From Bacillota bacterium (GTDB taxonomy: Bacteria > Bacillota > Sulfobacillia > Sulfobacillales > Sulfobacillaceae): a stretch of 36,537 nucleotides of DNA. Under the pieces are notes generated by a model that was not told the origin of the DNA, ran no database searches, and saw only the letters and a program-made list of their open reading frames with translations. The translations under genes and the position numbers were made by a program. The DNA lies in NCBI GenBank assembly GCA_021797825.1, contig JAJZZA010000031.1:1-36537 (forward strand), given 5' to 3'. Below, in pieces: positions 1 through 4,514 of this stretch; within the stretch, counting starts at the first letter, position 1; each line of letters begins with the position of its first letter.

Positions 1-1232
1 CCGGTAGCCGGCAAGGGATCGGCGGGTTCGACGGTCACCCGCAAGCCTAACTTCTCCAGGCGGCGCACCGTCCGCTGCACGATCTGGTTCCGGTCCCGGG
101 CGTCATGGTACGTCGGCCCCAAATCCTGATCGGGCTGGCCGTCGGTGAGGACGTGGACGACAATCACCAACAAGCGATGGGCTAAGGCCACGATGGCCTT
201 CTTCAGGGGCATGCGGCGGACCCAGCGGCGATACAGCGCCCCCAGGAAGGTGGTCTGGGTGTGGCTAGCGGCCCACGCGGCCAGGATCAAGGCTTGGCGC
301 AGAGATCGATTGCCCCGCCGGGTGCCCGCCCGCTGGCGGTTCCCGGCACTTTCATGCTGGCCGGGGGCCCACCCCGCCCAGGCGGCCGCGTGGTCGGCAG
401 CGGGAAAGCGGGTCATGTCGGTCCCGAGTTCGGCCACGATGACCTCCGCGGTCCGCCGGCTAATGCCCGGAATCGTGCCAAGGAGGTGAATCGTGGCCAC
501 CTGAGGGTCCACGCGGCGCACAATCTCCGCGTCGAGCGATGCGATCCGCATGGTCAGCTCATCAATGTGCCCCAACCGTGGCCCGCGCAGAAATCGCTGA
601 TGGTCACCCATCAGGCCTTGCCAGGCCGGCACCAGGGCGTCATATTTCGCCCGGAGGCGGCCGACCGCGAGGTCGGCGAGGATGGCCGGGTCGGTTTCGC
701 CCGCGACCCAGCGATCCAACATCGCGCGCCCGGACACCCCGAGCACGTCGGTCGCGACCGACGCCAGTTTGCTGTTGGCGCCTTCCAGCACCTTTTGCAC
801 CCGCTGGATGTCTCGGGCGCGCTCGGCGAGCCACTGGGTCCGCTGGCGCGGGAGTTCCCGGAGTTCCCGTTGGGGCTGGTCCGGGATGAAGCTGGGCGTC
901 AACACCCCATGCCGCAGCAGGTCGGTAATCCAGGTGGCGTGCTTCACATCGGTCTTGCGGCCCGGCACATTCTTCATGTGCGCCGGGTTCACCACCCAGG
1001 TGGTGAAACGGGCTTCCACGAGGTTATAGACGGGCTTCCAGTAGGAACCCGTCGCTTCCATGGCCACGTGGGTCACGTGCTCGGCTTGCAGGTCCAAGAG
1101 CTCCGGCGTGGTCGTGCCAAAGGTCCGGGGAGTAAACGTGGCGTGGCCCCGTCGGTCCGTGTGACACACACAGGCGACCACGGTACGCTGATGGACGTCG
1201 AGCCCCGCGCAATGGGGGTATAACACTCCCAT
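1..1232 (-). CDS. IS110-family transposase (C-terminus beyond window edge)
   Basis: This is a DEDD-type (RuvC-like) IS110 recombinase, which moves its element by site-specific recombination guided by a structured RNA. Reading inward from ATG at 1232, the N-terminal domain shows GLDVHQRTVV (first Asp), MEATGSYWKPVYNLV (Glu) and KTDVKHATWITDLLRHG (the Asp pair). A central helical linker follows. The C-terminal Tnp_IS116/IS110/IS902 domain shows LLGTIPGISRRTAEVIVAELG and the serine region SAGNRQRAGTRRGNRSLRQ. About 410 codons are open and the frame reaches base 1 without a stop, close to the full family length, so only the extreme C-terminus is missing. No internal frameshift was seen. A long plus-strand ORF over the same bases (261-1223) is its antisense shadow. 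It lies next to other IS debris. Confidence 0.93.
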   Translation of the reverse strand, partial: MGVLYPHCAGLDVHQRTVVACVCHTDRRGHATFTPRTFGTTTPELLDLQAEHVTHVAMEATGSYWKPVYNLVEARFTTWVVNPAHMKNVPGRKTDVKHATWITDLLRHGVLTPSFIPDQPQRELRELPRQRTQWLAERARDIQRVQKVLEGANSKLASVATDVLGVSGRAMLDRWVAGETDPAILADLAVGRLRAKYDALVPAWQGLMGDHQRFLRGPRLGHIDELTMRIASLDAEIVRRVDPQVATIHLLGTIPGISRRTAEVIVAELGTDMTRFPAADHAAAWAGWAPGQHESAGNRQRAGTRRGNRSLRQALILAAWAASHTQTTFLGALYRRWVRRMPLKKAIVALAHRLLVIVVHVLTDGQPDQDLGPTYHDARDRNQIVQRTVRRLEKLGLRVTVEPADPLPAT

Positions 1233-1440
1233 TAGGAACAGGGCCTTTCTGCACCCAGGCTCGGCGGCGCAAGCCGCCGGGTCCCAGCGGGCTCGGGGGA
1301 CGGGCCGGATCGCGAATCTGCCCCACGTGCTCACCCGAAGGCGGCGACCATCTCAGGTCCCCGAGGCACCCACCACAAACTCGTGTTCGCATGCGTAATA
1401 GTAATGGCAGAGAGAATTCCGTGGGGGGACAGGATGCTAC
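1233..1440 (-). ncRNA. IS110 non-coding end, candidate bridge (seek) RNA region
   Basis: About 200 bp without a convincing ORF precede the IS110 start codon. In IS110-group elements the long end upstream of the recombinase encodes the bridge RNA that selects target and donor. The segment has RNA-like structure: a perfect 7-bp stem with a 4-nt loop at 1262-1279 (CGGCGGC/GCCGCCG) and other GC-rich complementary tracts. The outer boundary is not visible, and the guide loops cannot be assigned without the left-end and right-end junctions. The call rests on family knowledge plus position. Confidence 0.4.
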
Positions 1441-2386: not shown

Positions 2387-2636
2387 CGCAGGCCACCGCG
2401 CCCGATGGGTGACACTCCCCAGGATATATCCCGTCTTCCCGCCGAGCCCCGTCGGGGGGCGGGTGAGTGACGTCTGCGCAACCTATCGAACAGACCAGGG
2501 GGTTTCGCCGTGCCACGAGTGACATATTGCTGCGAAAACATCCCCGCAATTTGTGCCCGTTTCCGACCCGAGATATAGGTGGGCAATTCTACCGAACACT
2601 TATGTTTCGTAAGTACAGTGGAGGTTGCGCCCTGTA

Positions 2637-3310
2637 ATAGGCTAAGCATCCAGCGCCTTGCCACCTTGCGGTGACCGGTTTCCGGATGCTCGCCCCCGAA
2701 CCGTACGTACACCTCGCAATGGATACGGCTCTCCATTCACTCATGCTCCACCGAGAGCTGTTGAGGGCGTCGGTAGAGGATCCACGACCCTGGGAGGCTC
2801 TTGTGATGCCTCACGCACCGTGCCTTTCGGACCGTGGAGAGGAAACTGCTCGCCTTCGCCAGGTGACGGGCTTTCCCCGTCGCGGACGACTACGAGAGCT
2901 CCGTAACCCGGCCGGATGTTCAGAGCCCGAGCTCCTCGCCGGGTGTCACCCGGCGCTCCGGTTTAGGTCATCCCTGTTAAGGTTCGTCTGCACCAGCGCG
3001 GACGGTTGTCGGATACGACGTGGGCCATTTTCCGCTGAGGGCGGCTGGGCGGACGTGGGTTATGAGGGTGGTCGCCGTCAGGTTGTCAACGCCACCCCCC
3101 GTCCAGACGGCGTTTGTAACCAGCTGCCGCCGTAGCCGACAATAAAGCCTCGCGGGCGGTCGTTCAGGCCGATCAGCCTTTATCCTCATACCGTTCGTTT
3201 CCTCTCGACACGCAGTCGCCGCCGGATGGTTGGCTGACTAGTGCTTTTCCCGGCATGCTGAGCGGACCCGGACGGTATAGCGTTCGGGCGAGACAGCCAG
3301 ACTAGGCGGG
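2637..3310 (-). ncRNA. ORF-less group II intron (5' end unresolved)
   Basis: The minus strand carries the 3' half of a self-splicing group II intron. Domain V is at 2698-2731, exactly 34 nt. It starts GAGCCGTAT, ends GTACGGTTC, carries the AGC catalytic triad and the AC bulge, and is closed by a GCGA tetraloop. Domain VI follows (about 2638-2695) with arms GGCGAGCATCC and GGATGCTTAGCC that leave a bulged A near the 3' end. The 3' splice site is probably at 2637. Upstream, 2839-2910 resembles from memory the domain II/III region of the Lactococcus Ll.LtrB intron (ACGGAGCTCTCGTAGTCGT), and 3160-3300 resembles its domain I. Domain IV (about 2732-2838) has no reverse-transcriptase ORF, so splicing or mobility would need a maturase in trans. 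The first ~100 nt of domain I seem to be missing next to the flavoprotein gene. ORFs predicted across it on either strand look spurious. Confidence 0.8.
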
Positions 3311-3315
3311 AGCGA

Positions 3316-3325
3316 GGGGGGGGGG
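3316..3325 (+). promoter_or_regulatory. G10 homopolymer in the ribosome binding site of the flavoprotein gene
   Basis: Ten consecutive G bases sit 4 nt before the ATG at 3330 and form the core of the only plausible Shine-Dalgarno sequence (AGGGGG...GAG). A slippage-prone run at this place would change the SD-to-start spacing. Confidence 0.6.
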
Positions 3326-3329
3326 AGCC

Positions 3330-4514
3330 ATGGCGAAACTGCGGGCGGTGGTATTAGGAGCCCGGTTCGGTGGCTTGGCGACGGTATCTTGGCTGCGGCG
3401 CCTTAAGTTTGCGGCCGAGCTCGAGGTGATCGTGGTCGATCGCTGGCAGGAAACGGTCTATCGGCCGGCACTGGTTCAGGCTATGGCGCTTGGACCCGCT
3501 TTCCGGGTTTCCTCAATGAATATGCCGCTCGCTCGGTTTTGGCGGCAGCATCGGGTAGAGGCGGTGCAGGACACCATCGTCGGGGTCGATCCCGAGCGCC
3601 GGGAAGTGTTCACGGCGTCGTCGCCGCCCATTTCCTATGATGTGCTGTTCGTTGCCACCGGCAGCGAACCCGCCTGGGATGGCATTTTAGGCCTGGGCCC
3701 CCACCGGGGCGGGGTGTGTGAAGGATATCAAGCCCGCCACGCGGCGCGGTTGAATGAAAGCTGGCAGGGTGGCCACTTCGTGTTTGCGACCGGCCCGATC
3801 TTGGGATCGCCCAACTGGGATCCGCCCGTCGCGGTCGGGTGCGAGCCTCCGCTTTGGGAGAGCGCCTTGTTGTTTGAACACCGGCTCCGCCAAACCGGCC
3901 ACCGGCAGGCTTCCAACCTGACGGTCCTGACACCGGGATCGGAGGTGGCGGAAGCCGCCGGTCCCCAAACCCGGCAGCGGTTAAAGCGGCTGCTCGTCAG
4001 CCGGGGGATCCGAATCCTCACCGGGGTTCGCTTTCAGGAGGTGACCGATCGCGAGATCGTGTTAGCCGACCAACGCATACCCTACGACCGCGCGTTGTGG
4101 ATCCCTCCCTGCCAAGGATCGTCCTGGGCTCAGTCGAGCGGGATTTCAGACCGCCAAGGCTGGATTCCCACCGACCATTACCTCAACCATCCGGAATTTC
4201 CCGCCATTTACGCGGTGGGCGACGTCATTAGCCATTCCTGGCCAAAAAATGGGCATGCCGCCATGGTTCAAGCGCGGGTCGCGGTACACCATTGGCAGGC
4301 CAAAATACGGGGCGGGCGCACTCCCGCACCCTATCGGCCCGAACTGTTGTGGATTCTCGATCTCGGCGGAGGCCAAGGATTGTTTTCGTTGGGCGACACA
4401 TTTTACGGCGGACATCGCGAAGTGTTGGTGCCCGGCCGTTCGCCCTATTGGGCCAAGCACCTATTCCAGGCGGCCTACATCGCCACCCGCGGGGCGCTCC
4501 CGATCATGCCTTGA
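3330..4514 (+). CDS. Sulfide:quinone oxidoreductase / NDH-2-like FAD flavoprotein
   Basis: This 394-aa pyridine-nucleotide-disulfide-type oxidoreductase has the SQR/NDH-2 architecture. The N-terminal FAD fold is RAVVLGARFGGLATV (residues 5-19) and the acidic end of beta-2 is VIVVDR. A second motif, DVLFVATGSEP, lies at 104-114, and the C-terminal FAD motif is FPAIYAVGDVIS. Cysteines at 130 and 171 (VGCEPPLWESALL) match the spacing of the first two redox cysteines of sulfide:quinone reductases. A third Cys near residue 265 does not fall where the usual third one does. Expected role: sulfide or NADH oxidation with electron transfer to quinone at the membrane face. The GxGxxG motif reads GARFGG, with Arg in place of the second Gly. 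It converges on the methyltransferase gene with an 11-bp overlap. Substrate is uncertain. Confidence 0.75.
   Translation: MAKLRAVVLGARFGGLATVSWLRRLKFAAELEVIVVDRWQETVYRPALVQAMALGPAFRVSSMNMPLARFWRQHRVEAVQDTIVGVDPERREVFTASSPPISYDVLFVATGSEPAWDGILGLGPHRGGVCEGYQARHAARLNESWQGGHFVFATGPILGSPNWDPPVAVGCEPPLWESALLFEHRLRQTGHRQASNLTVLTPGSEVAEAAGPQTRQRLKRLLVSRGIRILTGVRFQEVTDREIVLADQRIPYDRALWIPPCQGSSWAQSSGISDRQGWIPTDHYLNHPEFPAIYAVGDVISHSWPKNGHAAMVQARVAVHHWQAKIRGGRTPAPYRPELLWILDLGGGQGLFSLGDTFYGGHREVLVPGRSPYWAKHLFQAAYIATRGALPIMP

What the first reader, a model, noticed from the sequence alone, without database searches (positions are those of the whole stretch)
2637..3310. ORF-less group II intron in minus orientation, 5' end apparently lost
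A 34-nt domain V with catalytic triad and GNRA loop, a domain VI with bulged A, and Ll.LtrB-like domain I-III sequence are all readable, but domain IV holds no maturase. Such introns depend on a maturase in trans. The 5' part seems to stop right at the start of the flavoprotein gene.
Basis: partly seen in the sequence, partly recalled or inferred. Interest (0 to 1): 0.65.

Follow-up and report, generated by a model that had tools for sequence, protein, structure and literature searches.

The report
Broken copy of ORF-less group-II intron
This is the remaining 3' four-fifths of a small selfish RNA element (a group II intron without its own protein gene) that once inserted into the end of an insertion sequence in a Sulfobacillus-type bacterium; the copy has lost its front end and very probably can no longer splice or move, so it is ordinary genomic debris from a somewhat interesting intron family.

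Summary
Window 2637-3259 (minus) is a group II intron remnant: Rfam RF00029 scores 46.8 bits over domains V-VI, and the upstream part is 96% identical to a full-length, 759-nt, ORF-less copy in the same genome. The 5' end is lost: homology stops sharply at 3259 (not 3310), removing GUGYG and about 135 nt of domain I. An uninterrupted paralogue fixes the 3' end at 2637; the 3' exon is the end of an IS1595-type element.

Relatives identify it. An intact intron in the same bacterial family encodes a 603-aa LtrA-like protein in domain IV; ORF-less copies keep scars of that ORF's start and stop; EBS1 matches IBS1 copy by copy. So this is a 5'-deleted member of an ORF-less LtrA/ML-type family. The maturase-in-trans idea suits intact ORF-less copies, not this one, which has no 5' splice site. 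No LtrA-type maturase domain was found in this draft genome or in eight of eleven relatives that carry copies.

The window feature is ordinary. Near-identical ORF-less copies in a relative without a detectable cognate maturase are a better lead, but draft assemblies leave it open.

The parts
2637..3259 (-). 5'-deleted ORF-less group II intron (5' break at 3259, 3' end at 2637)
   Evidence: nhmmer boundary; 96% identity to full-length paralogue on C43
2698..2731 (-). Domain V, 34 nt, AGC triad, GCGA loop; one stem pair broken (C2722 x U2709, A-U in the other copies with a complete domain V)
2640..2694 (-). Domain VI with bulged A at 2643 (candidate branch point)
2771..2808 (-). Domain IV scar matching the first codons of the relatives' maturase ORF (start codon lost)
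2733..2753 (-). Domain IV stretch matching the end of the relatives' maturase ORF and the sequence after it
3077..3082 (-). Candidate EBS1 (CCTGAC), complementary to GTCAGG of the subfamily's target motif
2400..2636 (-). 3' exon: end of an IS1595-type element, uninterrupted paralogue on contig C99
1715..2386 (+). IS1595-family transposase ORF (degenerate) of the element that carries the intron

Best explanation
A dead, 5'-deleted copy of a group II intron from an LtrA/ML-type (IIA-like) family spread through Sulfobacillus-family genomes. An ORF-bearing ancestor lost most of its maturase ORF from domain IV; the ORF-less form spread, presumably mobilised by a related protein in trans. One copy inserted at the inner edge of an IS1595-type terminal repeat, guided by EBS1-IBS1 pairing. 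A later deletion removed the terminal repeat, the 5' splice site and about 135 nt of domain I and put the flavoprotein gene's upstream region next to the remnant. Shown: family membership, ORF-less state with ORF scars, 3' junction, IS-end exon, 5' loss, EBS1-IBS1 matching across the family. Inferred: mobilisation in trans, order of events, inability to splice.
For: RF00029 hit. Full-length ORF-less paralogue at 96%. Full-length ORF-less copies in several relatives, and an ORF-bearing one in G013 with a 603-aa protein carrying RVT_1, Intron_maturas2 and HNH domains; its best PDB match is LtrA, 463.6 bits over residues 4-599, against 152 bits for the next. ORF-less copies keep the ORF's first codons and its stop region. 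EBS1-IBS1 match 74.8 against a shuffled mean of 67.0, 0 of 2000 shuffles reaching it. In pL15 and G013 the joined exons restore a TraG-like frame at LLDEFG|N. The target motif forms the terminal repeats of an intact IS1595 element in G020 and is absent from the window at up to 3 mismatches, so the 5' exon is gone too.
Against: The window copy is not more mutated than its full-length paralogue (12 against 11 polarised changes; 97.8% of scored pairs kept), so loss of function rests on the deletion. A register-anchored comparison of the 40 nt beyond the break with the missing domain I gives p = 0.004 under a simple shuffle, although a free local alignment (p = 0.63) and nhmmer do not support homology there. 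Reads were not available, so a chimeric contig is not excluded.
Confidence: 0.9

Rival explanations
1. 5'-truncated insertion: reverse transcription during retrohoming stopped early and the short cDNA was joined to the target, so the copy was never complete.
For: 3' end intact and 5' end missing, as incomplete target-primed reverse transcription would leave.
Against: Then the 5' exon (motif ACATCCCCAGATAASTCAG) should lie directly upstream of the break; it is not in the window at up to 3 mismatches.
Confidence: 0.06
2. Assembly chimera: the copy is full-length in the organism and the contig was misjoined at a repeated sequence.
For: The intron is repeated in the genome and several contigs break at other copies.
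Against: The flank beyond 3259 shares no clear sequence with the intron, so there is no shared word to cause a misjoin.
Confidence: 0.03
3. Split intron: the fragment is the 3' half of a trans-splicing intron whose first 135 nt are supplied by another transcript.
For: Paired regions left in the fragment are intact, and copies with a complete 5' part but no domains V-VI exist on C46 and C79.
Against: The 3' exon is an IS end and no coding sequence would be joined; the C46 and C79 copies carry their own domain I-III rather than the missing piece alone.
Confidence: 0.01

Closest known systems
Ll.LtrB intron and its protein LtrA (class ML / IIA)
   Same: Domain V-VI anatomy; the ORF-bearing relative encodes a full-length LtrA homologue and, like Ll.LtrB, sits in a conjugation gene
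   Different: The window copy has no ORF and no 5' end and sits in an IS end
ORF-less TeI3 introns of Thermosynechococcus elongatus (PMC2882425)
   Same: ORF deleted from domain IV leaving terminal scars; multiple copies; mobilisation in trans is the likely route
   Different: LtrA/ML type; no driver protein found in this genome; this copy is truncated
C.te.I1 of Clostridium tetani (as described in PMC4424553)
   Same: ORF-less bacterial intron in a genome without a detected related IEP
   Different: C.te.I1 is intact and self-splices; the window copy lacks its 5' end

Membership tests
Group II intron | Domain V with catalytic triad and GNRA loop | tested here: met
Group II intron | Domain VI with bulged A and 3' AY end | tested here: met
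   A2643, end CCTAT
Group II intron, functional | 5' GUGYG and complete domain I | tested here: not met
   Homology begins at model position 136; present in paralogues
Group II intron, functional | Splicing of flanking exons | not testable with these tools
   Not predicted for this copy; in two ORF-bearing relatives joined exons are in frame
LtrA/ML-type (IIA) lineage | LtrA-type IEP in the same intron family | tested here: met
   In the G013 relative, best PDB hit LtrA, 463.6 bits; the window copy itself has no ORF
LtrA/ML-type (IIA) lineage | EBS1-IBS1 pairing through a domain I loop | tested here: met
   At family level; the window copy keeps EBS1 but not IBS1
LtrA/ML-type (IIA) lineage | IIA tertiary contacts such as delta-delta' and EBS2-IBS2 | not tested
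   Not examined
ORF-less intron derived by ORF deletion | Remnants of the ORF ends in domain IV | tested here: met
ORF-less intron served by a maturase in trans | Related maturase gene in the same genome | tested here: inconclusive
   None found, but the genome is a draft in 156 contigs
Circularly permuted group II intron | Domains V-VI upstream of domain I | tested here: not met
   Standard order here; no domain V near the C46 and C79 copies

The most novel reading that the evidence does not exclude
The window copy belongs to a lineage of ORF-less LtrA/ML-type introns that keeps spreading in Sulfobacillus-family bacteria without any LtrA-type protein in the same genome, served by a maturase of another intron class or by one supplied on transient plasmids.
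Probability: 0.15. Interest if true: 0.55.

Novelty: new member of a known kind. Interest (0 to 1): 0.22.

Why it matters
The copy itself is a fossil. Its family is a usable case for how ORF-less bacterial introns arise and spread: ORF scars, EBS1-IBS1 matches, insertion into IS ends, and ORF-bearing relatives on Sulfobacillus plasmids can be lined up. The 2015 review PMC4424553 calls ORF-less bacterial introns rare and names a single one without a related IEP in its genome; if complete genomes show several such cases here, that picture would change.

Tried and rejected
Intron continuing to 3310 or into the flavoprotein gene: rejected by nhmmer and paralogue boundaries, although 3260-3300 shows a weak anchored similarity. 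Circular permutation: rejected. Rfam models for domains I-IV: no hit, but the intact relatives are missed too, so uninformative. Faster decay of the window copy than of its paralogue: not seen. An old insertion shared with G007, where an intron fragment lies about 2.6 kb upstream of the flavoprotein orthologue: the DNA between is not similar, so treated as coincidence. Promoter and terminator scan of 2500-3450: nothing. PMC2525955: not held.

Full report
Observation. Rfam finds domains V-VI of a group II intron at window 2637-2733 on the minus strand, 46.8 bits, E 2.7e-6. The 34-nt domain V is at 2698-2731, domain VI at 2640-2694 with an unpaired A at 2643, and the intron ends CCTAT at 2637. 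The sequence upstream is real intron: the same genome holds a full-length copy on contig C43 that is 96% identical over 622 nt, and partial or diverged copies on C46, C79, C24 and C34. A profile of eleven other copies matches the window from model position 136 to 759, that is window 3259 to 2638, at 654 bits and with a sharp start. The missing part is therefore about 135 nt, including GTGYG, one strand of the basal helix of domain I and its first hairpins.

Structure. RNAalifold on 13 copies predicts 177 pairs, 47 of them with a two-sided change in at least one sequence. The alignment was made by sequence and the program chose the structure, so this supports the fold as a whole rather than each helix. 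The window copy keeps 97.8% of the scored pairs, the full-length C43 copy 96.4%, and the two have 12 and 11 private changes. One domain V pair that is A-U in the other copies with a complete domain V is C x U in the window.

Lineage. G013, a genome of the same family, has an ORF-bearing relative (L057 414-2929) whose 603-aa protein has RVT_1, Intron_maturas2 and HNH domains. Its best match among solved structures is LtrA, 463.6 bits over residues 4-599; the next, GsI-IIC RT, has 152. A similar intron lies on plasmid pL15 of Sulfobacillus thermotolerans and, with its ORF cut short, on the plasmid of S. acidophilus DSM 10332. In pL15 and G013, joining the flanks restores a TraG/VirD4-like frame across LLDEFG|N, so these relatives look like working introns.

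ORF loss. The ORF-less copies keep, in domain IV, sequence matching the first dozen codons of that protein and the region of its stop codon, as do the ORF-less introns of Thermosynechococcus elongatus (PMC2882425). In the window the corresponding stretches are 2771-2808 and 2733-2753.

Target. Most readable 5' exons of the window's subfamily carry a motif close to ACATCCCCAGATAASTCAG. The same motif forms the inverted ends of an intact IS1595-family element in G020:C12 with an 8-bp flanking repeat CTTGGAAA. The window's 3' exon, starting at 2636, is 87% identical over 237 nt to an uninterrupted IS end on contig C99, and the match starts exactly at the intron's 3' end. Across 15 distinct copies, candidate EBS1 sequences in one variable loop match their own 5' exons better than shuffled ones (74.8 against a mean of 67.0; 0 of 2000 shuffles). 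Small differences at some 5' junctions leave the exact exon end of this subfamily uncertain by a few bases. The motif is absent from the window, so the loss at the 5' side took the exon as well as the start of the intron; a deletion fits this better than a truncated insertion.

Maturase in trans. No Intron_maturas2 domain and no close LtrA relative was found in the window's genome; its RT hits are only distantly similar (39% at best) and the longest one carries the GIIM domain instead. Of 12 genomes with copies or fragments, three have the domain. G025, about 98% complete, has five full-length ORF-less copies, 98.1-99.6% identical within two subgroups, and no such domain. All but one of the 12 assemblies are drafts, and the coding part of a repeated intron is the sort of piece a draft loses, so absence is not proven. 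PMC4424553 states that ORF-less introns in bacteria nearly always share a genome with a related IEP.

Verdict. The feature is a broken member of a known kind. It probably does nothing now; its intact relatives work like LtrA-type group II introns.

Noticed in passing
L058, L059, L060, L061, L068 (G025 contigs C60, C73, C50, C23, C99): Full-length ORF-less introns, 98.1-99.6% identical within two subgroups, at different sites in a genome with no detected Intron_maturas2 domain.
   Followed up: partly
L003 and L004 (G000:C46, C79): Copies with a readable 5' exon that end near the domain III/IV border and have no domains V-VI nearby; in C46 the sequence after the break (TGTAGGGGACGG) resembles the usual 3' exon.
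   Followed up: partly
L137 3486-5975; L057 414-2929: ORF-bearing LtrA-type introns inside TraG/VirD4-like genes at the LLDEFG|N motif; joined exons are in frame. The 5' position in L137 is approximate.
   Followed up: yes
L138 4553-7846 (S. acidophilus plasmid CP003180): The LtrA-type ORF stops after about 315 residues and is followed by another reverse transcriptase and a GIIM-domain protein: possibly an intron inserted into an intron.
   Followed up: no
L131 about 533-1699 (G020:C12): Intact IS1595-family element whose inverted ends (CATACATCCCCGGATARCTCAGG, 8-bp flanking repeat) are the target motif of this intron subfamily.
   Followed up: partly
window 3-1334 (-): IS110-family transposase ORF beside the IS1595 element, whose left terminal repeat was not found.
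   Followed up: no
G000 contigs C24, C19, C149: Three contigs break at the same ORF-less intron 3' end, so at least two copies of a second subfamily with identical ends probably exist.
   Followed up: partly
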